Below, piece by piece: positions 15,261-63,860 of a stretch of 64,000 nucleotides of DNA (position 1 is the first letter of the stretch; the number at the start of each line of letters is the position of its first letter). Origin of the DNA: Gracilariopsis chorda (Eukaryota; Rhodophyta; Florideophyceae; Gracilariales; Gracilariaceae); the NCBI GenBank assembly GCA_003194525.1, contig NBIV01000034.1:1-64000 (forward strand), given 5' to 3'. The translations under genes and the position numbers were made by a program. The notes below the pieces were generated by a model. That model saw nothing but the letters and a program-made list of their open reading frames with translations. It was not told the DNA's origin and made no database searches.

Positions 15261-16021
15261 CTCTACAGCGCCAGAATTGCGAAAAGTTTAGAACGGGAAC
15301 GTTGTCCGAATTTCGGAGATCGAATTGCTGAAGTTTCCGCGCAGTCGCGGTAATATACGAAGCGTCTCGAAAAATCCAGCGTCGTCGCCAGGGTTACACC
15401 GGTCGTCCCGGATGATGCACCTTTTGAGGAAGACATTACACTTCAATTAGAGGCAACGTTCTTGGACATTGTGTCCACGGCGACAGCTGTACATGTCCCA
15501 TCAGAAGGTTTGATGCAACACACCAGAGCACCGGAAGTAACCGCCGGATATCGCGTGCCAACACAGCAGTGCACGGTGGAGCTGGACGTATAAGCCCCAT
15601 GCCAAGGGAGGTGCAACGCAAGGAGGCGGTTCAGAGCCCCATGTCGTGGTAGTCACGTTAATGCACGGAGATTGCGTGCCCCGCACCAACCACCACGTAA
15701 TGCGCAAAGCCCCATCAGCGAATGATCTCCGCAACTCTGCCAAAGCGGCAAGATGTCTGTAAGCTCTCGGTTCGACCGGACTACCGTCAACCTGGGACGG
15801 AGGACCCCAGGAAACTAGCGGTATGACATAATTACCACGGAACGCGGCAACAGTTCCAAGAAGAAACCCTCTTGAGAGATATTATTCCGCACTCTGCGTC
15901 GCACCCTCCAGGCAAACCAGGCACTTATCCGTTGCATTCTGACGGACCCCAGAAAAAATAAATCCCGTGCCACAGGCAACCCCTGACATGCGAGGTCACC
16001 ATAACACGGCAAGGCCAGCAA

Positions 16022-16234
16022 GTGAACAAACAAGACTTTCTAATTGACCCAATCGTCAGGCATACCTCGAATCAGAAAGTTGTTCTAAGATACCGCTTCC
16101 ATTGGTACGGATGTGACCCAAGCTGGGACACCATGGAACCCATCGAACACCTCCCCCGTTCGAAGGTGGTCCATTATCACTGCAGGGCGGTTACCAGAAA
16201 TCCAGCTACGCTGTGCAACGCCCAGTTGGGATAA
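16022..16234 (+). pseudogene. Chromodomain end of gypsy pol (fragment)
   Basis: The translated segment shows a chromodomain core: FLIDPIVRHT, then a beta-strand segment, then HWYGCDPSWDTMEPIEHLP. This last part is the usual W-x-GY-x-x-x-x-(D/S)-T-W-EP pattern with changes. Its C-terminus (PATLCNAQLG then stop) matches that of the intact copy's pol (PATLVNAQVG then stop at 53630). Chromodomains on gypsy integrases direct insertion to modified histones in other species. Only this tail remains. Confidence 0.7.
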
Positions 16235-16529
16235 AAACGGCGCGAAGCCGGAGAAGGTAGAAAAGATGAGTACACCCCCTTTCGTATGGACTACGTCAAA
16301 AACGACATTTACGGAGAAAAAGACGTTCTAAGCGCGACACTTTACTCAGGAGCCTGGCTCTTCTGTGTGGTGCTAAGCTACACTACTGGCTCAGCTAAGG
16401 AAAGAGACCAGGATACTGGATTAGAGGTTCGACGTCTCCCCATCTTCCGGGGCGTGACCACTCGCAAGGCGGTAAGCCAATGCTTCTGCCATTGCGGTGA
16501 TGTCATTCGAAACCTCGGCAGCGCCTAAA

Positions 16530-18248
16530 CTAGCTCTGCGGAGGAAACTGACAAATCACATCGCTTTTATTGAATGTACCCTCACTGGGGAGTGAAGACC
16601 CGGTGATCGCTGTCGCAAGACTGGGAACCTGAGGCACACCCTCTGGGGATTCGTCTACTACCACCTTGGCAACATCTAGTTCCAGGTCTCCCGGATCTTC
16701 GGGTTCGTTATCAACCATCGGTCTATCCCCGCTATACGCGCGGTAGTAATCGTCGGAGTCAACGTACCCAATCGGGTTGTCGGCTGGCACGTGCCACGGT
16801 GCGTCGCGAAATTCGCTCAACTCGGATGGGGAAATCTCCCGGAACACCCAGGGATCGAAGTAGATGAAATCCCCAGCGAGGGCGGTGTTTCTACCAGTAC
16901 TTGGACCACCGGTACCGCCACCGCCGCCGTCGAGCCGAGAGCTCTGTTCCAGCGGAAACTCGCTGCAGTCAATACTGTCGATCAGACCAAGTAATTGGAG
17001 TACTTCTTCATTTTTGGCCAAACCCCCGAGGGGAACACTGAGGTCTAGGATGCGAATAGCGTCCCACATGCGCAGTTGCATGAACCACCGTCTTTACTGG
17101 CCATAAGCCTCAGCGAGGATATACGCCACAGTGCGGGACACCCACTCGGTTACAATTACCGATCGAAGCCCCGACCGGGGATCCTGAATCAGGAAGGAAC
17201 CGAGGTACGTGAGTGCTGAAGGGAGCTCAACGTAGCAACCCTGACAGGCCTCGTGAAACCTCCACCATTTGGGGAGTGCAACATCTTGACCATGTCGTTG
17301 AGGCGAAGCAATCCGCTAAATCTCTACGTTTTGGTCCGGGACGAAGTACCCGAATCTGGATCAGCAGCGCCGTTTAACACGGACGACCTTTTGAAGGAAG
17401 TTGGACCGGAAATGCTGGGAAAGGTACTGGAGTCCAGCCCAAAGGATCGGTCGTCTCCAACACAGAGCTTTTTGCCGCGCCACGGGAAAGTTCCTCCACG
17501 CGAGGGTTTCGAGGCTGGCCAGGTGTTTGCCATAACCGATTTCTCCGCGCGTGCGAAATAGGCTGACGTCGAAACCGACACCAGTAGGCACCAGGAATTC
17601 GATTGGAACCGGGCTCTGCCGTTGATATGAAATCCGCACCAGTGCCGCGTGAGCTACAGCCGCGGATTCTCCCGAGTTTCTTCGGATATGGTGCACCGGG
17701 ATCGCGATTCGATGCCGCTAGTCCCACGATGAGTTGAGAAAGCTGGGTATATCCCCGGGCAGGGTACCGAAACCATCTGCGTAGGCCAAAACTAACTCCT
17801 CATTGAGGGCAGCGATGGGGTGGAACCACGGCGCAAGCAAGAGCGGAGAGGTATGACTTACATTCATCGGATGTAAACGTAAGCGGGCATTATAAGACGG
17901 CCAAGTCACCTCCGAGGTCGGTCCAGGAGGCGCCACCGCTGTTCGAAGTTGGAAACCATGCTGGGACGCTGCGCCAATGTTGGCTGGCTTTGCCAAAGTT
18001 CGCCACAGTTCTGGCAAGGGTACAGACCGGAAACCGGTTGTGAAGTTCCCAAATAGAGTCAGTCCTGAAGGTTTGTTGTTGTTTTTGTTCATATTCCCCT
18101 TCGAAAGGGTGTGATCCGGGGAAGTTGAGGAAGAAGGTGAAGGGCTTGCACTCGTGGAAAGCTGGTTTGCTGCTTTTGGAGGAGGTTGATTCTCTGAGGC
18201 AGAGGTTGGAGCCGGTGAGCTAAAGAGGCCTGGAACTTTATGGCCCAT
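16530..18248 (-). pseudogene. Antisense ORF of gypsy relative (broken)
   Basis: The ATG is at 18248. The product begins MGHKVPG, like MGDKSAC in the intact copy. Frames: 18248-17718 (N-terminal third), 17696-17361 (middle) and 17081-16530 (C-terminal third); frameshifts and a stop separate them. Shared blocks with the intact 595-residue protein include TTGFRSVPLP, LAPWFHP, FRTRGEIGYG, LETLAWRNFP, NEEVLQLLG, GDFIYFDPW and YVDSDDYYRAY. Protein similarity has outlasted most nucleotide identity. No known domain recognised. Confidence 0.75.
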
Positions 18249-18304
18249 TTTCCGTTGGGATTTGCCTACGTTCGCGTTTGCTTTCCCGACTAAATAGAGT
18301 GATA

Positions 18305-19100
18305 TTAAGTGCAGTGCCCTCAGTAGAGGATTCTTGGTACTTGGTTGATTTCCCGAATGTTTCGTTAATGTAGTTATTGCATGAGCTACGACCACTAATA
18401 GTAGATTTGACACGTGGAACATGGAAGAATCAATTGGCGGTTGGCCAGAGTAGTGGACATGAACCACCAAAGTGAAGTAAGTTAGTGAATTTTATTTATT
18501 ACTTTTACACCCATTTCTGGGATGGTTAGTACTTAGTGCGCCGGCTAGTTGCCGTCACATTAGTAAACCTTCCCCAACAAGGGACCTGAACCTGGGGATT
18601 TGGCTCTAAATCTGACCACCTTCGTGCGTTCTCTACTACTCCTTGGAAGGAACCATCGTACCACACGGAAAGTCTAACTTCCATGCCCGTCTAAAGGACC
18701 CCAGTACTTGAATTGTTATTCCAACTGTCTTGGTGTTCGCCTGGTATAAGGTTTAATTATCGGCACTGCGGTTAGTCTTCGTCACGACCTTCATGACTCA
18801 GCTCCCCTTTCCTTCTCCCTTTACAGGGTGGCTTTTCCGCTACCCACGGCTCGTGTTTGCGCGTGCCACTAACTTGGAAACCTCACCTCTCTAAAGGATG
18901 ACCACCCCCACAAACCGCTCCTGCCGGTACCCGATTCTTGCCTCAACCTCCCTGCGCAATTCGCGACGGGTGGCCTCGGCCTTTCAACCAAACATAGTCG
19001 TGCCACTCCTGGGAAGGCTGTACCCAACTGGCCTCCCCCCTAACGAGGAGAGATCCCGAACGTCTTTCGTTGCTCTCCAACGTCTGGGCATTGCACTACA
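18305..19100 (+). repeat. 3' LTR of degenerate gypsy element
   Basis: Read on the plus strand, it aligns along its length with the reverse complement of the LTRs at 50768-51592 and 60775-61600. It begins near TTAAGTGCAGTGCCC, passes CACCCATTTCTGGGA and CTTCCCCAACAAGGGACC, and ends at GGGCATTGCACTACA. Many substitutions mark it as old. Confidence 0.75.
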
Positions 19101-19249
19101 GCCCTTACCTCGGTTCGTTTTGCGGTTAGGGACCATGACTGGAACTGGCAGATCCAAGTTGACGAGCGTTGTATTCGTCAATCAAAGTGGTTGCCGCATA
19201 GTCCCACGTTATTTCCGAGATCTTCTAAGTCTTAAGTGCTGCAGCAGTT

Positions 19250-49179: not shown

Positions 49180-50767
49180 TGAGCCCCTATCCCCATGCTC
49201 CCAGTGTCAACAATTTTGTTCACTCTGGGGCAGGGTGATTTCGAGAAATATCGTGAATCACGCTGCTCGGCGTGAAATCACCCTGCTCCAAGCGTGAAGC
49301 TCACGCTGGAGGAGCGTGAAGTTCACGCTGAGAGCGCTTTTGATCACGCCGGAACACGAATTCTTTATCTCACTTGCTCTTAAGCTCAAACAATGCCCCA
49401 TTCTCCGTACTTTTGTGGCGCCTGTTCCTCAGCCTTTTCCATAAATACTTTCAGTTCAGCTTGTCAAATTTTAGCCTCCTTTAACTTTCAAACACTGTGC
49501 CACACATCCCAACACCTTGTACACAACGATTACTTACAAATTTTACACCACTGCCTGACTTTTGAACATCGCTTCTCTCTTAACGTTACTTTTCTTACTT
49601 TTAACAAAAATTTGTGTGAAAAAGAAGAACAAGAAAGCAATATCAAGACTTTTTTTTCTTCACTGCATAATTTCCAGGTAAACAAGGTCCTCGTTTTGCA
49701 TTTTTACCCCGGTTATACTTTTCAATGACGTTTCGGACATACAAATATGACAATAAATCTCGTTTTGAAAAATTTGTAGCCGCAAGCTCACTAAAATTCT
49801 TTACCTCATCCTGAATTCTGTATTGTGCTACAAACTTTTTTCTCAGCTGTTTTGCAAAGGTCTGAAAATTTCATACACTTAGACACAGCGTGTCTTTGAT
49901 TTCTATACCGGAACTGCATGTGTCGAGCAATATCATTGATTCTCCATAAGAAGCCTTTTGTATGAGCTAAAATTAACCGGTAGAACAAAGCAGAATTTGC
50001 AACTTGAGACGTGATTAATCTCCCTATAACGCCTAAATCGTATTTTCGGATGACGTTTTGTAGCGCAACCTTTTCATGTTACGGCTAAACTCGTCTACAC
50101 CGTCTTTAGGGTGGTTTTAAAAAACGAAAGATGTAGGGCGTATCATTCTGGATGGTTGTAGTAATTCCCGCTGTGGTACAAGTTTTTTGCAAGCATTGCT
50201 AACATTATAGTAAGAGCAGAACAAAAACAAATGTGTTGCATACGTATTAAGCAATACAGGATCACATTCTTTTGGTATGTTGTCGGCTTGTGGACCAATC
50301 CACCTAAATGCAATTTTGGGTAATGAACTGATCGCAAATATGTAGTAGGCAATGATTGCAGTTCTAAAATCGAACACCGCGATGTAGATAATTTCCTCCA
50401 CACCAATGTTGCTCCCTCAGCTCACAACAAAAAGACTGTCTTTTTTCCAAGAGCAACAACGTTATGTAAGCATTGAAATCGATATAATGTTCTTGGCACG
50501 AGTTAGTGAAAGAGGTTGTTCGAAAACTCAGATTATGCAATAGCAGATACTCGAACAACTTTTCTGTACATGTCAATAACACTTTCAGCCTCTTTGTCCT
50601 CCAAGAGGTCATTGTTTTCGCTTTGATAGCGCCAACGCAAATTTCATTCTCATAAACGAATGTAGCCATTCTGTCAGGACTCCCAGCATTTAAGGCTTTT
50701 TATTTCGAACGAATTAGCCCTGTTGTACGAATAAATGTGACTTCCACCTGTCTTTTTTATGCATCTC
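49180..50767. other. Intergenic, with a cluster of GCGTGA/TCACGC palindromes
   Basis: No gene seen. 49230-49286 has a 13-bp inverted repeat (GCAGGGTGATTTC / GAAATCACCCTGC). Two copies of the hairpin AGCGTGA-n3-TCACGCT follow at 49291-49307 and 49313-49329, plus half-sites at about 49254 and 49345. This could be the end of the DDE element whose transposase lies beyond the gypsy insertion, or a regulatory cluster. 49390-50760 is AT-rich with no recognisable product. Confidence 0.45.
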
Positions 50768-51592
50768 TGTGGTGCAATGCCCCAAAGGGGAAAAACACCG
50801 AAAGACGTTCGGGGTCTTCCTCTCACGAGGTGAACACAGTTGGGTAGAGCCCTCCCACAGGTGTCACGGCGAAGCCGTTTGTAAGACCAGGGACACCTGT
50901 CGCGACTCGCGCAGGGAGGTGAAGGCGAAGAATCGGTATCCGCGTGAGCGGGGGTGTGATCCTCAGTAGAGGTATGTTTCCACGTAAGTGGGGGTGTGTG
51001 AGCGGATGCGCACACGAGGGCCGCGGATAGCGGGAGGTGCTACCCTAAAAAGGGGAAAAAGGAAGGGCGAAGAGAAGGAAGAGAGGGCGAAGTGAGTCGC
51101 GAGAGCGACGGGGACGAACGGCGATGCCGGTAACAATATCCCTATACAGGGCGAAACACCAATGCAATTGGAACAATTATACTCCCAGTGATGGGTCCCT
51201 TTAGATGTGCAAGGGGGTTAGATGTCCCGTGGTTTACGGCGTTTCCCTCCAAGGAGGAGTAGAGTACGCGCGCAAGCGGCAACAACTAGAGCCAATTCCC
51301 CAGGTTGGGGTCCCTTGTTGGGGAAGTTTTACTGGTGCGACGGCAGTGCGCCTTCGCACTAAGTACTAGCTTCCCAGAAATGGGTGTGAAAATAATAAAT
51401 AATATTAACTAAAATACTCCACATTTCGTGGCAACATCCACTACTGTGGCCAACCGCCAATTGACCCAAAACCGTGTCCCACGTGTCGATACCCACCATT
51501 GCGGGGCGTAGTTCATACACGCACTACACAACCGATAATATCGGGATAACGATCAAGTACCAAGAATCCCTCCCTGAGGGCGTTGCACTTCA
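50768..51592 (-). repeat. 3' LTR of the chromovirus
   Basis: 825 bp, TGTGGTGCAATGCCCC...GTTGCACTTCA on the plus strand. It is preceded by ATCTC and followed inward by the polypurine tract. It contains about twenty short CC-NN-loop-NN-GG palindromes. Confidence 0.95.
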
Positions 51593-51608
51593 TATCCCCC
51601 CCCCCTAA
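51593..51608 (-). other. Polypurine tract of the chromovirus
   Basis: Ten C on the plus strand (51596-51605) give a G10 tract directly before the 3' LTR on the element strand. This confirms that gag-pol, and not the 595-codon ORF, is in genomic sense. Confidence 0.85.
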
Positions 51609-51650
51609 GACGGGAAAACGACCGCGGACGCGGAGGATTCCCAGACGAAA

Positions 51651-53438
51651 ATGGGTGATAAAAGCGCGTGCTCTGTCTCCGGTTCTTCGGTAAATCCCTC
51701 TGCACCAGAGTCATCGAGCGCACAAACAACAACAACAGCCACCCTCCAAAAGGGAAAAATGAACAAAGACAACAATATCAACAACCACAGCCAACCTCCG
51801 AGACTTCTCGGGCGATACACCACCGGTTTCCGGTCAGTTCCCCTGCCTCAGGGCGATCGACATCCGGTACAACCGGGGAATATGGCTGCTGCAGCCGACC
51901 ATCCCTTCGCACTACCACCTTCGGTGGTGTCCTCCGGAACCACTCCGCTGTCCAACTGGCCAACCTACAACACCCTGGTGGGGCTCAACCCGATGAATCG
52001 GAATCACGCGTCGCGCCTGCGCCTTGCCCCGTGGTTCCACCCAGTCGCTGTCCTCAATGAGGGATTGGTCACCACTTATGCGGATGGCTCAGACACCCTT
52101 CCGGGGGATCTGCCCAGAGCAGTAACCACGTCGTGGGATTGGCGTCACCGGATTGCGATTCCGCGTCACCACCTCCGAAGAAATTCGGGCGAGACCGTCG
52201 CTGCGGCACAGACCGCGTTGACGCGCATGGCGTATCAACGGCAGAGCCGGGCTCCATTCGATGTACCAGTCCCACCGGAGTTTGGCTTCGACGTTAGCTA
52301 CTTCCGCACTCGCGGGGAGATTGGGTACGGCGAGAACCTGTTCCGCCTCGAGACCCTCGCTTGGAGGAATTTCCCCGCAGCGCGGCAAGAAGCCCTTTGC
52401 TGGGAGCGACCGATTATTCGGGCGGAGTTCAGGTACCTTCCCCGGCAATACCGGTCCAACTTTCTCCAAAACTTCATCCGCTACGAGCGGCGTTGGCGAT
52501 CCCGATTCGGGTATTTTATCCCGTATCAGAACGTGGAGATAGAGCGGATTGCGCCGCCTCACCGACTAGGTCGGTATGTAACACTCCCCGAGTGGTGGCG
52601 CTTCCATGAAGCCTGCCGGGGGTGCTACATAGAACTCCCGCCGGTACTTACGTACCTCGGTTCGCTGCTCATGCAGGATCCCCGGTCGGGGTTGTGGTCC
52701 GTATTGGTTACAGAGTGGGCGGCCCGCAGTGCGGCTTATATCCTCAACGAGGCGTACGACCAGTATCGTCTCTGGTTCCTTCAACCGCGTGTGCGGGCAG
52801 CGATCCGAAACCTGGATCTTCGCATCCACCTTGGGGGCCAGGCCAACAATGAAGAGGTCCTCCAATTACTTGGGTACATCGACAGCGTTAGCTGGAGTGA
52901 GGTCCCGCTGGAGCAAAGCGGTCGTCTGGATGGCGGCAGCGGTAACACCGGTGGTCCGGGACTTGGTAGAAACACCGCCCTTGCGGGGGATTTTATCTAC
53001 TTCGACCCCTGGGAGTTCCGGGAAATTTCCTCCGAGGAGGCGCGCGAGCTTCGCGATACGCCCCGGCATGTGCCGGAAGACCACCCTGTTGGGTACGTCG
53101 ATTCTGACGACTACTACCGCGCATACGGCGGGGATGACCCAATGGTCGATAACGAACCGGAAGAACCCGGGGAGATGGACGTAGAGGAAACCGGCGCTAG
53201 CGCGGAAGCTTTCCCAGAGCGGGTATCTCCGGCCGAGCCGGCTGCTGACCCTTCGGCGGCAAGTTCCGGACCTTCTATCCCCAGCGGGGTGACGGCGAAT
53301 GAAAACGAGATCATCGCACGTTTCCTCCGGGGTGCCGGTCTTAGCGCTGCCGAGGTATCGGGGGATGTCACCACCATGGCGGACGCGTTGGCCTACCGCC
53401 TTGCTGGTGGTTACGCCCCGGGCAACGGCGAAGAGTGA
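51651..53438 (+). CDS. Antisense ORF of chromovirus, 595 aa, unknown
   Basis: A complete ATG-to-TGA frame on the strand opposite to gag-pol, starting 58 bp inside the 3' LTR and ending 192 bp short of the pol stop. The N-terminus is Ser/Thr/Gln-rich with short Lys patches. The centre (about 100-430) is Arg-, Trp- and Tyr-rich and looks folded (LAPWFHPVAVLNEG, FRTRGEIGYGENL, LETLAWRNFPAARQEALCW, LPEWWRFHEACRGCYIELP, NEEVLQLLG). After GDFIYFDPWEFREIS the C-terminus is acidic. No known domain or catalytic motif is recognised. It is not Env-like: no signal peptide or membrane segment is seen. A homologue at the same place in the relative at 16.5-18.2 kb shows it belongs to the family. Promoter would have to lie in the LTR, read in antisense. 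Confidence 0.75.
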   Translation: MGDKSACSVSGSSVNPSAPESSSAQTTTTATLQKGKMNKDNNINNHSQPPRLLGRYTTGFRSVPLPQGDRHPVQPGNMAAAADHPFALPPSVVSSGTTPLSNWPTYNTLVGLNPMNRNHASRLRLAPWFHPVAVLNEGLVTTYADGSDTLPGDLPRAVTTSWDWRHRIAIPRHHLRRNSGETVAAAQTALTRMAYQRQSRAPFDVPVPPEFGFDVSYFRTRGEIGYGENLFRLETLAWRNFPAARQEALCWERPIIRAEFRYLPRQYRSNFLQNFIRYERRWRSRFGYFIPYQNVEIERIAPPHRLGRYVTLPEWWRFHEACRGCYIELPPVLTYLGSLLMQDPRSGLWSVLVTEWAARSAAYILNEAYDQYRLWFLQPRVRAAIRNLDLRIHLGGQANNEEVLQLLGYIDSVSWSEVPLEQSGRLDGGSGNTGGPGLGRNTALAGDFIYFDPWEFREISSEEARELRDTPRHVPEDHPVGYVDSDDYYRAYGGDDPMVDNEPEEPGEMDVEETGASAEAFPERVSPAEPAADPSAASSGPSIPSGVTANENEIIARFLRGAGLSAAEVSGDVTTMADALAYRLAGGYAPGNGEE

Positions 53439-53629
53439 GCCCCTTTTGTCCAGTTTCCTGGTGTTCCTTCCCTGGCTATGCCAGTTAGTGTAGTGTAGTA
53501 TTGTGGGGAGCTAGCTGCTCCCTTGAATAAACTTTCCCGTTTAGAACGGTGCTTCTCGGTTGAGTTCCCCGTCTTCGACGGACCTTGCCTTGTTATCCTT
53601 TCCTATCGCTCTCCGCTCGCGCGGCAACG

Positions 53630-55996
53630 TTACCCAACTTGGGCATTAACCAGCGTGGCTGGGGCTGCAGTTCCCGTTTGACGGTGGTATCGCAGGACCT
53701 GCGACCGTGGGAGGTGTTCGATTGGCTCCCACGTATCCCCACTGGGGTCGTACCCGTATCAGCGGACGCGGTATTGTAGAATACCATCCTGGTCCCAGGT
53801 GTGTCCGACAAGTCGGTCTACTACGAACTCTCGTTCGTAGACCTGCCGGCCGTGCCAGGTGGGGGTTGTACTCCCTTGCGGAGGCTGCCCGCTGTGCGGT
53901 ATAATGTCCCTTAGCAGGGTGTTCGGCGATAACTCCGGCGTTGCCGTGCGCTGTGATAGCGGCCGCTGCTCATGCGGGAAGATATCCCTCAAGAGGGTGT
54001 GTGGTGCCACGGTTTTCACCGGCAAGTCATTCCCCATTGGGGCAGGTTCATTTCCGCTTTCGCGGTATTGCCGGCGAACCGCCAGTCGGCGGGGGACTTG
54101 GGCTCCGCCTTCGCGGTTGAGCTCACGAACCGCGAGTTTGCGTGAAGATGACCGCTCCTGCGGAATCGGCATTTCCACAATCCCCTGGGGGGTCCCGTGC
54201 GACACGGTGATTGGGTGGCAAACCGCCTCCCTGCCAGGCGCACGAGCGCTCTGCACCATACGTTCCGGCGATGCCGTGGTGTCCCCGGCTACTGACGGGT
54301 TGCCTGGGCCTAACTCCGATACACCGGTATTTTGGTCAAAAGTCCCCTTTGGGGGGTGCCGGGCAGGTGCCGATGACACCCTTTTCAGGGGCTTGGCCGC
54401 TAAGTGCGGTGCACCGTCTCCACGCGGAGGAGCAGCGTCCGGTATGACCGGTTTCGAGCGTGCGATGGCGTGCGCTTTTTCCGAGTTCCTCGGTTCTTCC
54501 CCGCAGCGTTGCGGGAGGTGGCGCAAATTATTCCCCGGAACGGGGGCTTCAATTCCGTCGACGACGGGAGGCGTTTCCGGCGCTTGCGGGCCAGGGCCTG
54601 AAGCTTCGGCTGCGGCTTGGCTGCCTTTTTCCCCAGGTTGGGTGTGGGGATTTCCCAGCGGCGCTGGTATATCTGGGCGCCTCTTCTCCGCAGGGCGCGG
54701 GTCTGATCGACCTGATTGAACGGCTTCCGCGGGGACTTCCGCCAACGGCGGCTTCGAGGCATCGCCCTGCTCAGGGGATTGAGGGCGATCGTCGCCGTAC
54801 TCCTCTAACGGGGATCCTTCCCTGACAGGGGTGTGCGGTAGCTGCGTTTCCACTTCCCGTTGGGATGGCGATATCGTTCCTCGAAAACGAGTGTTCTCCT
54901 CCCCCTTCTTAGACGGAGCAGCGGGATAAGGGATAACATTCCCCGCCTGGCGGGTGTAAATTCGCGCCAGGGGGGCGGGCGCTGAGAGGCCCGAATTACC
55001 CGGCTGAGCCGGTGAGTCCGACAGGTTCGGTAGGTCTGAGAGTCCCCGGCTGGGGTGTGGTAGTACCGTAGGCCTAGTACTCCCGGATGATTCCGGTGTT
55101 GCAGAGTCCGTAGAAACGGGATGTTCTGAATCCAGGATTACCTCTGAGGAGGGAGGGGGGGCGAGTACGACACGATCGCGGGAGATCCGCTCGTGTGCTT
55201 CACCTATCTCTACAACGACAGTGTCGGCATTAATAGAGATGACCTTGAAGGGTCCGTCCGCCACAGGCGAGAGTTTGTGACGCTTCTCCCGTTCCGGGTT
55301 GTAGTACTCCTTCCTTATGAAGATGTAGTTATTCGCCCGAATCGGGGACGGTTTCCCTCGCAAGCGAGCATCAAAATCCCGCTTCTAAGCGGCTTGGGCC
55401 CGTGCCATAGACTTCCGCGCAGCGGGGACCAGCTTGGAAAGCCATTGCTTCCATTGCTGCCGGTAGATACCCACAGATGGGAAATTGTCCAAGGTAGCTT
55501 GGGGTTCCAGCGCCACAGGCGGGGGTGTTCTAGATAGAACCAACTCGAATGGCGAAACTCCGGTAGTCCGGTGTACCTGCGTATTGTACGCGTAGGTTAC
55601 CGCATCAGCGTAGAGATCCCAATTCGTTGGGTGGTCAGCGACGTAGGAACGTAACGCCGCGAGTAACGTCCGGTTAAACCGTTCAACTTGCCCATTACAC
55701 TGGGGGTGGTAGGTAGTCGTGAACAAGTTCTTGACATCCAGGATGCGACAAACATCCTGGAAGAACTTGCTCACGAACTGCTTCCCGTTATCGGAGAGCA
55801 CCTCCACAGGGGGACCGTAGACAAAAATCCAGTGCGTCACCAGAGCCTGGGCCACCGTGAGGGCGGTTATCCTCCGAAGAGGGACAGTCCGTACCAGCTT
55901 AGAAAAGCGGTCGGTAATGACAAGTAGAAACTTGTTTCCACGTTTCGTGGTGAGTAATGGTCCGAGAATATCGATCGCGATAAACTCGAGCGGCGC
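53630..55996 (-). pseudogene. Chromovirus pol: integrase core, long linker, chromodomain
   Basis: The integrase core (55996-55385) has all three catalytic residues: Asp in FIAIDILGPL, Asp in VEVLSDNGKQF, Glu in CNGQVERFNRTL. An in-frame TAG follows (55385-55387). The C-terminal integrase domain continues in the same frame (KLSPVADGPFKVISIN, VVVEIGEAHERISRDRVVLA). An unusually long Pro/Ser/Glu-rich linker of about 400 codons (55180-53850) comes next. The chromodomain (53840 on; YEREFVVDRLVGHTWDQDG) has a TGA where a Trp codon is expected (53757-53759), and pol ends with TAA at 53630. The H2C2 zinc region that should precede the core is absent (deletion). Nonfunctional as it stands. Confidence 0.85.
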
Positions 55997-58499
55997 CCTT
56001 TTTATAAATGACTTGAAAGTCATATTCCGCGAGGCGGAGTCTCCAGCGCATGAGGCGTCCCGACGGGTCGGAGATATTCATCAACCACCTCAATGAGGAA
56101 TGATCCGTGTACACGGTGAAGTGAACTCCCATAAGGTACGGGCGCAGAGTGGTCATCGCCCATACGACGGCGAGGCACTCTTTCTCCGATACGGAGTAGT
56201 TCCGCTCATGAACATTGAGCGAACGTGACCAATAACCAATTGGATGTTGTTCCCCCTCAGGGGTGGTTTGAAAAAAAGCACACTCGACTTGGTAGTCGCT
56301 CGTGTCCGTATCTACGGAGTATGGCAACCCAAGTTTTGGGAGATGTAGGATTGGTGCTGATGTGACAGCCTCCTTCAAGGAGTTGAAGGCTTCCGATTGC
56401 TCGGGCGTAAATGTTCCCAGTTTTGGGGGGTTCCCCTTTCGCAACAACGCGTTTAGGGGCGCCGCAGTATCCGAAAAGTTCGGGATAAACCGTCGATAGA
56501 CGTTGACCAGCCCCAAAAAGGAGCGCAGTTCCGTTTGAGTACGGGGTTCTTTCGCCTCAACGAGGGATTTGACTCGAGCTTTCTCGATCGCTAACCGTCC
56601 AGGACGGATAATGTGACCCAGATACTTCACAGTATCTGTGAAAAACTCGCATTTCCTCAACTTGAGGGTAATTCCCGCATCGCGGAGTACGGTCAGCACG
56701 TCTCGGACGTGAGTGAGATGGTCGTCCAACGAGTTGGAGAAGATGATAATATCATCAAGGTAGACCAGACAACTCCGCCACTTAAAGCGGTTGAGTAGAA
56801 TATCTACTGCACGGTGAAAGGTGGCGGGGGCGTTGGTTAACCCAAATGACATCCGCTTGAAGTGGTGCGTTCCTGCATGGCAGGTGAATGCGGTTTTGTC
56901 GCGATCCTCCTGTCTGACAGGTACTTGCCAATATCTCCAATTGGCATCAAGGGCCGTGAACACGGTGGCGTCTCCAAGGGAGTCAATGCACTCGTCCATA
57001 CGAGGGATGGGGTACGTGTCCCTAACGGTCACGGCATTGAGCCGGCGGTAGTCGACACAGAACCTCCAGGTTCCGTCGGCCTTTAAAGCCAGTACAACTG
57101 GGGATGCCCAGGGTGATTGAGCGGGCTCAATCACACCTGCGCGGAGCATCTTGTCCACTTGGGACTGCTCCTCTTCCCGAGCTTTCGGACCTGCCCTGTA
57201 AGGGGGTTGTGCAACCGGTCGCGCACCGGGGATTAAATCGATCCAGTGTTCCGTTGCATTAATCTCGCCAAGCGAGCCATCCCACATTGTGGTGAATTCC
57301 CGTAACATGGTACGGAGTTTGTCGCGGTGCGACTCTGGCACGTGGCTGAAGTCCAGCGCTTCAAGTGCTTTTCCCGGATCAATCCGGTCGTTGCTCGATG
57401 GAGCATTGTCCTGTGGAACAGGTGTGGTTCGCAATTCCGAGTTACTCGGTATGTTCGACGCTGAAGTAGCGGTTTCCTCCCCCTCCTTAGACTTGACGTC
57501 TTCGGACGGCGGGGCGAACTCCTCAGAAGAGGTGGCAACTCCGAGTACATCGGCGGCTGTCATCTTCGTCGGCAGCATTCCCATAGGATGGGGGGTTACA
57601 CTCCCAATTACTTGGTGTTTGACCAGATACTGGGGGTGTTTGCCAAGGTTGGCAACCAATATACGGAAAGGAACATCCGGGGAAATGGAGACAATTCCAT
57701 TAGCCAGCGCCAGCTGGGATTTCTCGTATAACGAGGCGAGGGGTTGTATAACCCGAAGACCGTGTTGACGGGAATTTACCTGCACCCAGACTTGGGACTC
57801 GGCCGGTATAGAAACCGAGGCAGCGACGCGGAGCTTGGTGGACTCGCGGGACGCGGGCGGTGGTTCCTGCGCAGCAGGGAGCGGAACTTGTTTCCGAGAG
57901 GACCGCTTTAGCGGGCGGCGAACAATCGGAACCGACGATCCGTCGTCAAGTTCTACACGCCTGAGGCGGGGCCTGATTGCGTCGACAAATCTGTCGCAGT
58001 AATCACATCCCAGTATGACTGGTGCTGCCAATGAACGGCAAACGATGAAGTCCAACTTCACCACAGAGGTACCAAGTCTCACGACGAGGTCCACTGTGCC
58101 CACCGTTTGTAACGGATTGTTGTTCGCATCCGAAATGTCGGGGACCGCGTCAGAGCGGATACGCGACCGCACAAGCGGGGGTAAAAATGATTCCACAACA
58201 AAGTTGGGGCCTGCACCTGTATCCAGGACGGTGAGAAACCTCACCATAAACTGGGGGTCAAGGCCAAGGTCGGCATAGACCTTATAATTGCGCTTGGCCA
58301 AGACCAAGACTCTACCGGGAATCCGGGGATTTTTACTCCGTATCCACGGGCGACGCAACACACCGAGGTGCGCAGAGTCCGCGTCAGTGCTGTCTTTCCT
58401 CGAGAGGACTTTCACCGGGGAGCGAGGCGAGGACGCCTCGAGCGCCAACAGCCTCGTTCTTGAGGACGCCTCTCCCAAAGGGGAGACTCCATCAGTTAG
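55990..58499 (-). pseudogene. Chromovirus pol: protease, reverse transcriptase, RNase H
   Basis: An open frame overlaps the end of gag by a few bases in the -1 frame; its first codons are non-ATG, so it would be made as a fusion. Aspartic protease VLDTGAGPNFV (about 58226), with a second conserved segment VILGCDYCDRFV. RT from LIPGARPVAQPPYRAGP through FCVDYRRLNAVT, FTALDANWRYWQV and LVYLDDIIIFSN (YLDD active site, about 56755). RNase H has VDTDTSD, where the family usually has T-D-A-S-D, then YWSRSLN, EKECLAVVWA and VYTDHSSLRWLM. The frame leaves RNase H and runs straight out of register at 55990, where an internal deletion joins it to integrase. Confidence 0.88.
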
Positions 58500-60669
58500 T
58501 TTTCCGCCTTCGGCGGTGGGTTGGTTTCCTCCAAAACGAGTGCTTCATCCCGTTGAAGGGGGTTTCTATCCGCATAAGCGGGGGTTGCAACGGATGGTTG
58601 CGTGATCTCCCGAATCGGGGTGTATGAAGCTTGCCGCGCACGCGGGGTCTGTGGTAGGGCGTGGGAAAAGTCCGTTTTAGCACGGAGGTAGGAAGCCGTC
58701 GGGACGGAACGTTTCTCCTCTGGAGTGAGGGCCTCATAATTTGCCACCACCTTGGCCATATCCTTCAGTGAACAAATACACTGAGGAGAGGTATGGCCAT
58801 GGGCATAGCACAGGTGGCAAATGAGAGCCAGCACCACGACACGCGGATTATTATTCCGAGTATCAGAGAAGCGAACTGCAGGGCGGGTGTCAGTCCATCC
58901 AGGCCGTTGATAACGGGATTGACCGTTTGAAAACAGGAGTCGTTGGGGTTGAACCCGACTGTTACCACCGTACAAAACGGGGTCTTCCGTTCCCGTATCA
59001 CGGTTCATCTCCGTCGTTGACGGTAAATCACTGGTGGGTATCGACACACCATCCTCCTGCACCAAATGCACGGTATCAAATCCCTGTCCAGGGTTCCCAT
59101 TCGCGGTGAGCGGGAGAGAGGAAGCTTCGCTTTCCAGCAACAACGCCTTGGCGGATTTAGACCGATTGTTCGGAGTTCTTGCACGAAGTGCATCCCGTTC
59201 CGCTCGGGCGTGTTGGACCAGCTCGAGATAGGTGATCCTCCGCTTGTCCTCCCGATAACGGGTAACTAAACTCCGGATTGCCCGGTCAAGACCATCGATG
59301 AACATGGTACTGCGCTCCCCAGCGGGGTATACGTTACCACATCTGTGGAAAGCCTTGTTAAGGCGCACCGAGTAATCGGTCTCGGTCTCTCCAGCACGCT
59401 GGCGTGTATCTCGCAAAGCGAGGATAGCCTGCTGAATAGCGGTGTTGGTGGCGTAGGAGCGCAGAAGATACTGCACAGCCTCCGGCCAGCAAGTAACTCC
59501 TCCCTCGGAGGTACGAGAAGATCCTCTGACAGAGTTGTATTGGTCCTCCGCCACTCCCCGTAAGAATACGGTAAAGCCAAATAGGCTTGTCCCTCATTCA
59601 TACCGAGGATATCGGCCTCCGCTACAAAGTGGGATAGGAAATCCAGTACTAGGACTGGGTCCTCTCCAGTGAAATACTGGTTGCGGAGCGAGAGCTGCAT
59701 TCGCTTAATGCATTCTCGCACCTTTCCCGTACCACGGGGCGCACGTCCAAGTGACGAGTCTTCGAGCCGGTAGTACCGGTATGATAAAAGCTTCCGGTAA
59801 TCCGGGTTTGTCGGTTTCAACTCCCGAAGACCAGGGTGTCTTCTCCCCTTCTGGCGGGTTCGGACCACACCTTCAGTGGCCGATGACCGCTTCGAGCGGG
59901 AGGAGTAGCCTCGCTTCTCGTCCTCCGAGTCGGAGTCCGAGGAGCTCGAGCTAACCGAATTGTTTCGGGATGAGTCCGACGATGTCGAAGAATCAGAGTC
60001 CGAATATTTTCGGTGGTGTTTCCGTCGATGACGGCGTTTCTTCTTCCCAGCAAGCTGGTCGTTGTGCGATGCCTCGTGTACTGGATCATCCGGGGATGGT
60101 TTGTCCATGAGGACGAACTGCTCCAGCGTCTCCAGGCGGGCACCAAGCCGATCAAATCAGGCTTCAACTCCTTCGATGAAGGTGGCGGGTTGCCCCAAAC
60201 TCTCCAACACGGAATTGACATCAGACCGTAAAATACGGAGTTCCTCGGCAACCTCCTTTACGGGGGTTGCCGAGAACACCTCTTGGAGGGATTTTAGTTC
60301 CCCTACAAGGGTGTCATGAGCGGTCCACAGAGCGCGGACCTGGGATTCCAGGGAAGTCCCCTGGAGGGTGTTATCGCCCGTTCCACGGGGACTTGAAGCC
60401 GCGACAGCGGGAGCAGGCCAGGGTGCCTGGGGCACTGCGGCAACAGCCGGAGTCGATGCTGCATTCCCCTGCGGGGGTGATAACGAGGGTAAAAGGAGGT
60501 TCCGGGGTTCCCGGTCGGGGGTATCATTCCGCGATGAAGCGGCGCCAGTACGGCTGGAACTTGTCCGTATAGGGATACGGGGTACGAATCGAACTTCGGA
60601 AGTGTCCCCATTGTCGCAGGAGTGACTACGCGTAACCACTGGCTCCGCATCGGAGGGATTTCTCGACAT
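58496..60669 (-). pseudogene. Chromovirus gag (one stop, one frameshift)
   Basis: ATG 60669 lies 106 bp inside the 5' LTR. The N-terminal part is Pro/Ala-rich with a coiled coil (ESQVRALWTAHDTLVGELKSLQEV). An in-frame TGA (60157-60159) follows, and the same frame resumes (GARLETLEQFVLMDK...). A Ser/Asp/Lys-rich low-complexity region is next, then the capsid-like region (DPVLVLDFLSHFVAEADILGMNEGQAYLALP). A one-base indel near 59560-59580 shifts the frame, and the capsid continues (WPEAVQYLLRSYA... FIDGLDRAIRSLVTRYRED). A CCHC knuckle CHLCYAHGHTSPQC (58829-58788) is present, and gag ends at TAA 58496. Gag coats genomic RNA. Order and motifs are clear, but two lesions prevent a full product. Confidence 0.8.
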
Positions 60670-60755
60670 GAGAAAATACCGTTACGACGGGAAACGATCA
60701 CAGAACTTCCGGTAAATAAAAACAAACCTCCTAAGAGGGAAAACAAAAACCGATT

Positions 60756-60771
60756 CTAGGTCGGGAGACCA
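60756..60771 (-). other. Probable primer-binding site of the chromovirus
   Basis: Three bases inside the 5' LTR the element strand reads TGGTCTCCCGACCTAG. TGG pairs with a tRNA CCA end, and the following bases would match a tRNA acceptor arm ending in GGGAGA-CCA. I cannot name the tRNA. It is a conventional 3'-end primer, unlike the copia elements here. Confidence 0.5.
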
Positions 60772-60774
60772 CTT

Positions 60775-61600
60775 TGTGGTGCAATGCCCCAAAGGGGAAA
60801 AACACCGAAAGACGTTCGGGATCTTCCACTCACGAGGTGAACCCAGTTGGGTAGAGCCCTCCCACAGGTGTCACGGCGAAGCCGGTTTGTAAGACCAGGG
60901 ACACCTGTTGCGACTCGCGCAGGGAGGTGAAGGCGAAGAATCGGTATCCGCGTGAGCGGGGGTGTGATCCTCAGTAGAGGTATGTTTCCACGTAAGTGGG
61001 GGTGTGTGAGCGGATGCGCACACGAGGGCCGCGGATAGCGGGAGGTGCTACCCTAAAAAGGGGAAAAAGGAAGGGCGAAGAGAAGGAAGAGAGGGCGAAG
61101 TGAGTCGCGAGAGCGACGGGGACGAACGGCGATGCCGGTAACAATATCCCTATACAGGGCGAAACACCAATGCAATTGGAACAATTATACTCCCAGTGAT
61201 GGGTCCCTTTAGATGTGCAAGGGGGTTAGATGTCCCGTGGTTTACGGCGTTTCCCTCCAAGGAGGAGTAGAGTACGCGCGCAAGCGGCAACAACTAGAGC
61301 CAATTCCCCAGGTTGGGGTCCCTTGTTGGGGAACGTTTACTGGTGCGACGGCAGTGCGCCGTCGCACTAAGTACTAGCTTCCCAGAAATGGGTGTGAAAA
61401 TAATAAATAATATTAACTAAAATACTCCACATTTCGTGGAAACATCCACTACTGTGGCCAACCGCCAATTGACCCAAAACCGTGTCCCACGTGCCCATAC
61501 CCACCATTGTGGGGCGTAGTTCATACACGCACTACACAACCGATAATATCGGGAAAACGATCAAGTACCAAGAATCCCTCCCTGAGGGCGTTGCACTTCA
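60775..61600 (-). repeat. 5' LTR of the chromovirus
   Basis: 826 bp, near-identical to 50768-51592 and followed by the target duplication ATCTC at 61601-61605. Confidence 0.95.
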
Positions 61601-61605
61601 ATCTC

Positions 61606-63860
61606 TGAACTCTTCATTTGTCTGAAAGGCCTCTGCCTCAAGTACGGTATTATGATCAAAGAATTGCGGAATATTCTTGAGAACTTTACGCTCGTTACGT
61701 GAGCCTTCTTTTATTCCAACTGTGAGAGTTAGTGGCTTCATGAACCACGCTGTCAGTGATGCTTCATACAATTTTTGTTGCAATGACTTTGTGTGCACAT
61801 ATGTTGCTGGTCCTCAGGCAATTGGGGCATTTGGAGGGCGTGCAAAGCAAGGCTTCCATCGTTGAAAGACTGTTGAAGAGCCAGTATTTTGCTTATAGGG
61901 GGTTTTTTGTTCGTTGAGGATGGGTGTCGATGGTCCACGTTTGCAAGCATTGAGTATAATTGCTCTTTTCTTAGCGCTTGCAATGACGACGGAGTGGCTG
62001 TCATTATTGCGGACACAGGATCACTCGCACTCGTGGTTTCGTCGGTGGGGCTCCTACGAAAGCCTAGAGTCGTTATGATATGTTCCCATTTTGTATTCAG
62101 ATGTTCCTTTGTTTTTAATATGTCACTCGGTAGCGGAGAGGATCCTCGCACAACTATATTCCCCTTCAATAGTTCTGCGCTTCCAGCCAAATTTTTGTCG
62201 TAGTCAGCTGCAAAGGTAACGATGAAGCCATGTGTCATTCTTGAAGTGAACTGAAATGCACGCATCAAAAACCATCCTGGGTCCTCAGATTGTAAGAAAG
62301 TGTATTCGTGAAATTGGGTAAGTGCAAGGCTGAGCTTGAGTTCCGATTCGGCACTTACGTTAGTGCTGGTAGAAGCTTCTAAGGTGTAAACATCGTTGAA
62401 TTTCTTTCGATTCTCGGCAGCAACCCCCCGGCTCAAGAACGCAGACTTCGGAATCAGAGTGTACAGATGTGATCTAAACAATTTCAAATTGTGGTGGTAA
62501 ACCGAAGCTATCCTGCCCGAAAAGCTTTCTCTATACACAATAGCTTGGATCACTCTACCGTCCTTCTCTTTTGCAAGCCTTGTCGCACTGTACGCAGCTC
62601 TGCAATCCTTTTCCTGCACGACCATACCTCTATGGCCCTTTCGCACTGGGCCGTCTCCATAGACGAAAGGATAATCAAGACTCCGCTTTTGGGTCCCAAT
62701 TCCAGTAGCACCAAGCCAGTCGGTGATGAGGTCCACAGTCTCTTTTCCGTTGTAGCCGCGATCTGCAGCAAAAATAGCATTGGTCATTGGCCTCAGAGAT
62801 CTTGGAGTAGCGGCCCCCTGCAAAAGTTGGACTGATCTCTCCCACAAATGTATTAGCTTTTCCCCTGGTCGAGAGTAATCACTAGATAGAAATCCGGTGG
62901 TCAATACAGAGCACAACGCGTTATTAACAGACCCGAGGGCCTTTTGAGGATTATTCACATTTGAAAGGTTGGTAAGATGTGTCCAGTCCTAGATCGTAAT
63001 CGTTGGTGATCGTCATCCAGGCTGAAAATTATTTGCCCTGGAACGTACAAGTAGCTTCTATTGAATGCCGACAGCTCTTGCTCCAGTTCTGTGATCATTT
63101 GATTTCCAACGACCGGTTTGTTGAACCACCCCTTCTCGCTATTACTGTAAACCTCTGCGCGTTGTCGACGCTTTTTTGTTCCGCTCAATGCAACCCAAAT
63201 TTCCGCGTAACGGTTCCCCGAGATTCCAGTTTGATATTAGAACTCTTCATTTTCTGTGGACGGCATAACCGACACAGTAGTACCATATGAGGCTGCGAGC
63301 ATATGGTTCACAATGATGCCCTTCAATTCTATCAAAGTAGTAGGCTTTTCCTTCCAACCCGACAGTACACGATTAACGTAAGAACGTATTTTTTCCAGCA
63401 ATGAAGTTGGCAGAAACACATATAAGACATTCATGCGAGTTATTTGTGACTCCTCGAAAACAACGGGCCCTTTCAAAAGTACTTTAACTTCTTTCACGAC
63501 TTTGTCAATGAAATCGTTTGCTTCATTGCAAGAACGACGTCCCAAGAATTCATCAGTGTTGTCAAGTTGTATTTCTACGTCTTCAAACGCTGTTGCGTAT
63601 TTCCAGCCTGGTAGTCCTCCTGTTTGATGCGCCGTACTCCGCACTTGCCACTCCTCTTCATTGTCATCATTTTGCTCTGTACTATGTTATTCGGCATTAT
63701 TCTCAACAACAGTGTAATCCAAAATGCATTGGATGGGGTCAGCAAACAACGCAGACCAGAAGTCTTCAACCTCAGTTGTATGAGCTTCTTCTGCGTATGA
63801 CAAATTGCTCGCCACAAAAGTCGCACTCTTCTTGCTCAAGTCCGTCGGTGTTCTCGGAAT
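61606..63860 (-). pseudogene. DDE-like transposase of unrecognised family, broken
   Basis: Minus-strand pieces: 63644-63237 and 63188-62955 (same frame, one TAA between), 62958-61753 (next frame), and 61798-61606 (C-terminal tail). Motifs include GQIIFSLDDDHQRLRSR (candidate first Asp) and NAIFAADRGYNG (candidate second Asp in DRGYN). Further on are KDCRAAYSATR, IVYRESFSGRIASVYH and a region rich in Ser/Leu. The arrangement suggests a DDE-type transposase of a kind seen in protist genomes, but I cannot place it in a named superfamily. The chromovirus inserted two codons before its stop. N-terminal end is not resolved. Confidence 0.45.

What the first reader, a model, noticed from the sequence alone, without database searches (positions are those of the whole stretch)
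50768..61600. Chromovirus studded end-to-end with CCNN-loop-NNGG palindromes
Short inverted repeats of the form CC-N-N, a loop of 1-7 nt, then the complement ending GG occur about every 20-40 bp across both LTRs, gag, pol, the linker and the antisense ORF. Examples: CCCC-AAA-GGGG (50780), CCTC-AGTA-GAGG (50962), CCAC-GTAA-GTGG (50980), CCAAT-GCA-ATTGG (51158), CCGATA-A-TATCGG (51532), CCACC-TTC-GGTGG (51918), CCGAC-AA-GTCGG (53807), CCGC-TTTC-GCGG (54056), CCTCAA-C-TTGAGG (56656), CCAAC-GA-GTTGG (56727), CCGCC-TTC-GGCGG (58503), CCGCG-CA-CGCGG (58635). At equal base composition such a motif with loops 2-6 is expected about once in 800 bp. Stem sequences vary while the CC...GG frame and spacing persist, through coding and noncoding DNA alike. 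The copia element and host genes do not show it. It could be a scaffold of RNA hairpins in the genomic RNA, a landing array for a hairpin-binding protein, or the trace of a palindrome-making mutational process. I know of no described element like this.
Basis: partly seen in the sequence, partly recalled or inferred. Interest (0 to 1): 0.88.

Follow-up and report, generated by a model that had tools for sequence, protein, structure and literature searches.

The report
Hairpin-studded retrotransposons of a red alga
A family of jumping genes in the red seaweed Gracilariopsis chorda carries a tiny, conserved hairpin about every 45 letters along its whole length, genes included, and some sister families use differently spelled hairpins, which suggests an undescribed recognition code written over the genes.

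Summary
The 10.8-kb Ty3-type element (50768-61600) holds 244 non-overlapping CC..GG hairpins (22.5/kb; 43 expected, z 33); the rest of the window gives z -1.3 to 0.9, except a related relic at 15901-19110. Codon-preserving shuffles leave z 9-15 in five element ORFs and -1.9 to 0.2 in four control ORFs. The unit is tight: four Watson-Crick pairs, the outer two C-G, loop mostly 3-5 nt, no fifth pair outside. The host is Gracilariopsis chorda. Related families C, D and E share the grammar; of three further Ty3 sequences with excess hairpins, two (F, G) spell them differently, one (L090) alike. Copia, host genes and three outside Ty3 elements show no clear excess. Between families A and B, hairpin-foot bases in LTR/aORF differ at 2 of 140 sites against 57 of 248 CC/GG sites outside, while private changes in dead copies are similar: selection in active lineages, not a mutational scar. 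Most likely a single-stranded intermediate, probably genomic RNA, is bound along its length by an element protein, best guess Gag; that step is inference. Six literature listings showed no such element.

The parts
50768..51592 (-). LTR (3' LTR in gag-pol sense), with about 20 CC..GG hairpins
   Evidence: LTR pair 98.2% identical over 833 aligned columns; TG..CA ends and 5-bp duplication ATCTC at 50763-50767 and 61601-61605 read from the printed sequence; hairpins listed
51596..51605 (-). polypurine-tract candidate: run of ten C on + strand next to the 3' LTR
   Evidence: sequence; role inferred from position
51651..53438 (+). antisense ORF, 595 aa, 35 hairpins; homologue of G. chorda BWQ96_03215 (49%) and of a Gracilaria domingensis protein (48%); no Pfam domain
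   Evidence: A-B fixed differences by codon position .22/.15/.47 over the part aligned indicate protein-level selection
53759..55363 (-). linker ORF downstream of integrase, 40 hairpins
   Evidence: no Pfam match in this copy
55703..55993 (-). integrase core (PF00665)
   Evidence: residues 11-107 of the 55385-56023 ORF
55899..58478 (-). protease motif DTGA (58212-58223), reverse transcriptase and RNase H ORF, 55 hairpins (11.3 expected by codon shuffle)
58496..60669 (-). gag region, in pieces in this copy; zinc knuckle CX2CX4HX4C at 58778-58819
   Evidence: hairpin excess in two pieces
60775..61600 (-). LTR (5' LTR in gag-pol sense), about 20 hairpins
50780..61588 (.). array of 244 CC-NN-(loop)-NN-GG hairpins
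   Evidence: full list; statistics
15901..19110 (.). decayed copy of related family B with 30 hairpins (9.3/kb, z 6.4)

Best explanation
The element's nucleotide sequence carries a second code on top of its genes: an array of some 240 minimal hairpins (mostly 4-5 bp, loop 3-5 nt, fixed C-G/C-G foot, unpaired neighbours) that form on a single-stranded replication intermediate. Shown: the array, its size range, conservation of its foot in active lineages, its decay in dead copies, and different spelling in some sister families. Inferred: the acting form is the genomic RNA, each hairpin is a weak site for the element's own nucleic-acid-binding protein (most likely Gag with its zinc knuckle), and many weak sites together coat, compact and select the RNA for packaging, so that sister families in one nucleus can tell their RNAs apart.
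For: Enrichment beyond codon and dinucleotide nulls, on both coding strands and in the linker, and present in the LTRs. Watson-Crick pairs enriched 6.5-12.8x at pairs 3-4; mismatch types 0.3-2.2x except T.G at pair 4. An outside Watson-Crick pair is avoided (families A, C, D, E pooled: T-A 4 seen, 26 expected; A-T 12 against 31). LTR+aORF: A-B differences at the CC/GG foot 2/140, at pairs 3-4 14/139 (p 0.002), at CC/GG outside hairpins 57/248, while private changes in dead B copies are similar. Hairpins re-made in place: 56328 (CCCAA-GTT-TTGGG against T-CCCA-GTT-TGGG-T), 51419 and 51841; five double compensatory inner pairs among 37 hairpins. Same grammar in families C, D, E, whose antisense proteins are 54% (A), 61-65% (E) and 71% (D) identical to that of C. 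Grammar shifted by one pair in F and different in G. Gag carries a zinc knuckle. Sense RNA is predicted to form the hairpins slightly more often than antisense RNA (0.396 against 0.354, p 0.001); in pooled families sense G-U at pair 3 is 38 against 20 expected, antisense-strand G-U 34 against 26.
Against: No binding or probing data. In family A, G-U pairs at pair 3 are no better tolerated than other mismatches, unusual for selected RNA helices; the commonest tolerated mismatch at pair 4 is T.G on the antisense strand (3.5x; 3.8x pooled). The sense-over-antisense folding difference is significant in two of five families only, and 4-bp hairpins are predicted to form only 35-40% of the time in RNA against about 56% with DNA parameters. 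In RT the stem-versus-rest contrast of fixed to private changes is modest (p 0.037; p 0.20 at codon position 3 alone); the reverse-ascertained LTR/aORF test is weaker (11/119 against 77/382, p 0.006); between F and L090 stem bases are not more conserved than the rest. L090 spells its hairpins like A although nearer to F, so spelling does not simply follow kinship. No gag sequence of F, G or L090 was seen, so coevolution with Gag is untested.
Confidence: 0.4

Rival explanations
1. The hairpins act on single-stranded DNA: the minus-strand cDNA made during reverse transcription (the window + strand), as sites for a DNA-binding protein or to keep the strand folded and protected.
For: DNA energy parameters predict the hairpins formed more often (about 0.56 against about 0.37); strict Watson-Crick pairing at pair 3 in family A; T.G is the commonest tolerated mismatch on this strand; with a four-pair stem, loops of families A, C, D, E pooled are T-rich on this strand.
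Against: Sense and antisense DNA hairpin probabilities are alike overall (0.566 and 0.557, p 0.08), so nothing points to one cDNA strand. The loop bias is the same thing as A-rich loops on the sense RNA, and is not seen in family A when loops are taken after full closing (sense A 0.27, T 0.30).
Confidence: 0.2
2. Anti-dsRNA or anti-silencing structure: dense local self-pairing of both strands slows annealing of sense and antisense transcripts (the element has an antisense gene) or hides the RNA from small-RNA machinery.
For: The hairpins are palindromic, so both strands fold; families A-E carry the antisense ORF; stems are short, 338 of 367 being 4-5 bp in the looser scan of family A.
Against: Does not explain a fixed CC/GG foot more conserved than the inner pairs, nor the different preferences of F and G; an intact multi-copy copia family (35 of 35 scored places at 97% or more) has no such array.
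Confidence: 0.15
3. Mutational origin: reverse transcriptase repeatedly copies one arm from the other (intrastrand template switching), creating and repairing short palindromes.
For: Perfect Watson-Crick stems, double compensatory changes, and hairpins re-made one base away; positions turn over between F and L090.
Against: Predicts any complementary foot; instead the CC/GG foot is nearly invariant (2/140) against 14/139 at inner pairs, and an outside pair is avoided. Three Ty3 elements from other sources lack the array.
Confidence: 0.1
4. By-product of composition, codon usage or protein sequence.
For: The element is GC-richer (0.57) than most of the window.
Against: Dinucleotide and codon nulls; GC 0.64 DNA of the window shows none; present in non-coding LTRs.
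Confidence: 0.01

Closest known systems
Dispersed packaging signals of single-stranded RNA viruses and hepatitis B virus (parechovirus PMC5431903, abstract and outline seen; HBV PMC7612645 and enterovirus PMC7793301, start of abstract in the listing only)
   Same: Many degenerate short RNA sites along a genome that share a small recognition feature and are thought to act together in assembly.
   Different: The HBV abstract puts the motif in stem-loop loops and the parechovirus abstract counts 60 RNA segments; here the shared feature is the helix foot, loops are nearly free, 244 sites cover 28% of a retrotransposon, LTRs included, and some sister families spell it differently.
Genome-scale ordered RNA structure of persistent RNA viruses (term search, listing only)
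   Same: Genome-wide folding imposed on coding sequence.
   Different: Here the fold is a near-uniform 11-14 nt hairpin with fixed closing pairs; overall folding energy excess is moderate (mean z about -1.3 in 120-nt windows).
Yeast Ty3 genomic RNA by SHAPE (PMC11381356, abstract, outline and one results section seen)
   Same: A Ty3-type element whose genomic RNA folds and dimerises through short palindromes at the 5' end.
   Different: The section read describes a mosaic of structured and dynamic regions and mentions no repeating hairpin unit.
Chromoviruses (Ty3/gypsy with chromodomain)
   Same: RT, RNase H, integrase, zinc-knuckle gag; many close protein relatives carry PF00385.
   Different: Antisense ORF and hairpin array; chromodomain not detected by Pfam in this copy.

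Membership tests
Ty3/gypsy LTR retrotransposon | Two near-identical LTRs with TG..CA ends and target-site duplication | tested here: met
   98.2% identity over 833 columns, ATCTC duplication
Ty3/gypsy LTR retrotransposon | Order gag-PR-RT-RH-INT | tested here: met
   zinc knuckle 58778-58819, DTGA 58212-58223, RVT_1 and RNase H domains, then rve downstream
Chromovirus | Chromodomain after integrase | tested here: inconclusive
   No Pfam match in the linker ORF of this copy; close relatives have PF00385
Dispersed packaging signals | Many similar stem-loops spread over coding and non-coding genome | tested here: met
Dispersed packaging signals | Shared recognition motif in the loop (as in the HBV abstract) | tested here: not met
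   loops varied with a mild T bias on the + strand; GNRA 5 and 8 of 70, UNCG 1 and 1 of 70 on the two strands
Dispersed packaging signals | Sites bound by capsid/Gag protein and needed for assembly | not testable with these tools
   needs biochemistry
Genome-scale ordered RNA structure | Folding energy well below sequence-preserving controls along the genome | tested here: inconclusive
   mean z -1.32 and -1.23 on the two strands (36 windows each) against -0.56 copia (14 windows) and -0.19 host (30 windows)

The most novel reading that the evidence does not exclude
Ty3-type elements of this red alga carry a hairpin alphabet over their whole genomes that differs between families: a self/non-self barcode by which each family's Gag recognises and packages its own RNA among several co-resident families, with the code diverging by register (pairs 1-2 in A, C, D, E and L090, pairs 2-3 in F, another preference in G).
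Probability: 0.3. Interest if true: 0.95.

Novelty: categorically new. Interest (0 to 1): 0.88.

Why it matters
If right, a retrotransposon genome is a dense protein-landing array as well as a set of genes, with selection for a physical code on roughly a fifth of its bases (stem positions are about 19% of the LTR and RT stretches examined). It would let one ask directly how related retroelements sharing a nucleus avoid packaging each other's RNA, and give a natural library of hundreds of variants of one hairpin for learning a recognition rule.

Tried and rejected
Chance, base composition, codon usage: rejected by dinucleotide and codon-preserving nulls. Stable RNA tetraloops as the point of the design: rejected, GNRA 5 of 70 (+) and 8 of 70 (-), UNCG 1 of 70 on each strand. 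Tandem repeats in 49200-62000: one weak array, outside the element. Regular spacing: gaps look like random placement with few below 6 nt plus an excess at 7 (judged by eye, no test). Cytosine protection against a deaminase: considered and dropped because CC remains common outside hairpins (445 cases; no formal test). Strand of action by wobble pairs: inconclusive. Relatives in IMG/VR and GTDB contigs: none; two (L077, L078) and one (L089), none with the array (CC..GG z 0.8 and 0.3 for the first two; any hairpin z 2.3, 1.7, 0.1 against a Markov null, and 1.4, 1.9, -0.9 against codon shuffles).
Full report
WHAT IS THERE. The stretch is a Ty3-type LTR retrotransposon: LTRs 50768-51592 and 60775-61600 (98.2% identical over 833 aligned columns), ATCTC target duplications, gag-pol on the minus strand with zinc knuckle, DTGA protease motif, RT, RNase H and integrase, and a 595-aa antisense ORF on the plus strand. 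This copy's gag-pol is broken into several ORFs; copies with open frames of 1875-1887 aa exist elsewhere in the genome. The genome (91.3 Mb, 1081 contigs) is that of Gracilariopsis chorda: a predicted protein of that species matches it at 100% over residues 1-491 of 617, and its contig length equals that of own contig C30, 445473. In the RT search 144 of 144 scored places were at least 96% identical (4079 candidates, not all scored), so the family is abundant and young.

THE ARRAY. 244 non-overlapping hairpins of the form CC-NN..NN-GG lie in 10.84 kb (both LTRs counted), 28% of the bases, median gap 24 nt. Expected 43.0, s.d. 6.1. Outer dinucleotide CC is enriched 6.2x, GG 1.3x. With a four-pair core the loop counts for 1 to 8 nt are 19, 10, 50, 85, 71, 25, 11, 11; loops of 5-6 nt usually close by one more pair. 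Watson-Crick types at pairs 3 and 4 are enriched 6.5 to 12.8x, mismatch types 0.3 to 2.2x, the exception being T.G at pair 4 (3.5x). A pair just outside the foot is avoided: in the pooled families T-A 4 seen and 26 expected, A-T 12 and 31, G-C 6 and 11. In a looser scan of any stem of 4 bp or more, 338 of 367 are 4-5 bp, 22 are 6 bp and 7 longer; the longer ones are also above expectation (22 against 8, 7 against 3), so the limit is a preference, not a wall. The flanks are polar (T before CC in 47%, G or T after GG, plus strand) in all element regions irrespective of coding strand, but background CC and GG show part of the same bias, so I do not lean on it.

NULLS AND CONTROLS. Codon-preserving shuffles (200 each): five element ORFs z 9.2 to 14.7; four controls z -1.9 to 0.2. 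Counting any hairpin of 4 bp or more with loop 3-6, against 100 codon-preserving shuffles: F 9.7, G 8.5, RT ORF of A 11.2, antisense ORF 8.0, copia -0.2, dynamin 0.8, and three Ty3 elements from other sources 1.4, 1.9, -0.9. Other transposons and GC 0.64 DNA of the window: z -1.6 to 1.2; the outside Ty3 loci 2.3, 1.7 and 0.1 by the Markov null.

EVOLUTION. Family B (about 82% identical in RT) has hairpins at the same columns. RT region: of 46 places strict in at least three A copies, 36 keep both inner pairs in B, 4 have one mismatch, 5 lost or shifted the foot, 1 had no majority; of 29 strict in B, 29 are strict in A (overlapping registers counted apart). LTR plus start of the antisense ORF, where turnover is higher: of 39 places strict in A, 20 keep both pairs in B, 4 have one mismatch, 6 lost or shifted the foot, 9 had no majority; of 49 strict in B, 27 are strict in A, 3 have one G-U, 1 two mismatches, 18 lost or shifted. 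In that second stretch foot bases differ between A and the B majority at 2 of 140 sites, pairs 3-4 at 14 of 139, pairs 5 and beyond at 12 of 31, loops at 42 of 128, CC/GG outside hairpins at 57 of 248; private changes of single dead B copies are alike (5.2-5.4% at the foot against 4.9-5.9%). Sites with fewer than six B letters or no 60% majority were dropped. Defining hairpins in B instead gives 11 of 119 against 77 of 382, p 0.006, weaker but in the same direction. In RT at codon position 3: 5 of 68 foot sites, 19 of 90 CC/GG outside, 96 of 329 other; the fixed-to-private contrast of all stem sites is p 0.037, and p 0.20 at codon position 3 alone. Five inner pairs changed on both sides and stayed complementary, and some hairpins were rebuilt in a shifted register (56328; 51419, 51841). 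Dead copies carry fewer hairpins: 12.4-18.9/kb in 14 B fragments and 9.3/kb in the window relic, against 22.5. Together this is maintenance by selection in the active lineage and decay afterwards.

BREADTH. Searching with the G. chorda antisense protein brought out further families C, D and E; against the C protein, D is 71%, E 61-65% and A 54% identical. The eight loci cut from them (L079 lies inside L081, so seven places) have 14.4-18.8 hairpins per kb, z 12.8 to 20.2; in L081 the density rises from 0-1 to 6 per 500 bp at the LTR edge. The grammar is the same: CC 6.0-7.6x, loops 3-5. Searching with a frog Ty3 protein brought out other Ty3 families: F (L087), 83 hairpins against 36; G (L088), 55 against 21; and L090, 72% identical to F, 27 against 12. 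In A, C, D and E1 the C-G pairs are 1 and 2 from the foot; in F they are 2 and 3 under a free outer pair; in G the foot preference is weaker, inner G-C rises and 4-nt loops dominate (48 hairpins only); L090 is like A. Between L090 and F only 7 of 27 hairpins share both ends and stems are not more conserved than the rest (80 of 252 against 258 of 946), so positions turn over while the density stays. Only one sequence each of F, G and L090 was seen, and the last two are under 2 kb.

MECHANISM. Shown: hairpin pairing under selection, a narrow size range, and different spelling in some families. Inferred: a protein reads the helix foot. Many weak equal sites on a single-stranded genome, spelled differently by co-resident families, fit cooperative coating and selective packaging by Gag; the gag of family A has a zinc knuckle. 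From memory, not from a call: the Ty3 particle has about 540 Gag copies, near two RNAs times 244 sites, which may be coincidence. Strand: predicted hairpin formation is a little better on sense than antisense RNA (0.396 against 0.354 over 440 hairpins, p 0.001; significant in A and D, not C, E1, E3), but DNA parameters give higher formation on both strands (0.566, 0.557), and wobble and loop-composition evidence is mixed. I give 0.4 to RNA with an element protein, 0.2 to single-stranded cDNA, 0.15 to dsRNA avoidance, 0.1 to template switching.

NOVELTY. The listings of six searches of the held open-access library showed no retroelement with a genome-wide array of uniform short hairpins; two more looked for algal LTR papers and one for Gracilaria. 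I saw titles and abstract starts, plus one abstract with one section (PMC11381356) and one abstract with outline (PMC5431903). Subscription papers are mostly not held. The nearest ideas are dispersed packaging signals and genome-scale ordered RNA structure. I file it as working possibly like the former, not as a member: the motif is in the stem foot, not the loop, and binding is untested.

Noticed in passing
51651-53438 and P0121-P0125: Antisense ORF of the element belongs to a protein family seen in Gracilariopsis chorda, Gracilaria domingensis and three unnamed sources, without a significant Pfam or PDB relative; codon positions show purifying selection.
   Followed up: partly
15901-19110: Decayed relative (family B) of the element, about 74% identical in its best blocks, minus-strand orientation, hairpins partly decayed.
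   Followed up: yes
L061 (own contig C11): Junction near L061 position 1161 where family-B-like sequence (82% to A) gives way to an A-type LTR (94%), consistent with an A-type element nested in a B-type one.
   Followed up: no
window 55618-55950, compared with L031-L060: About 20 of 30 aligned copies share a block of different sequence here in which three hairpins are altered, one to a different perfect hairpin: the window copy belongs to a minor subfamily or is mosaic.
   Followed up: partly
pair 4 of hairpins, families A-E pooled: C.A on the sense strand (T.G on the cDNA strand) is the commonest mismatch (3.8x), which could be C-to-T change on minus-strand cDNA or a tolerated wobble.
   Followed up: no
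7854-11879 and own genome: An intact copia family with a 1341-aa open frame; 35 of 35 scored places are 97% or more identical; no hairpin excess, a useful negative control.
   Followed up: yes
gaps between hairpins, 50768-61600: Excess of gaps of exactly 7 nt (20 of 243) and only 4 of 243 below 4 nt; meaning unknown.
   Followed up: no
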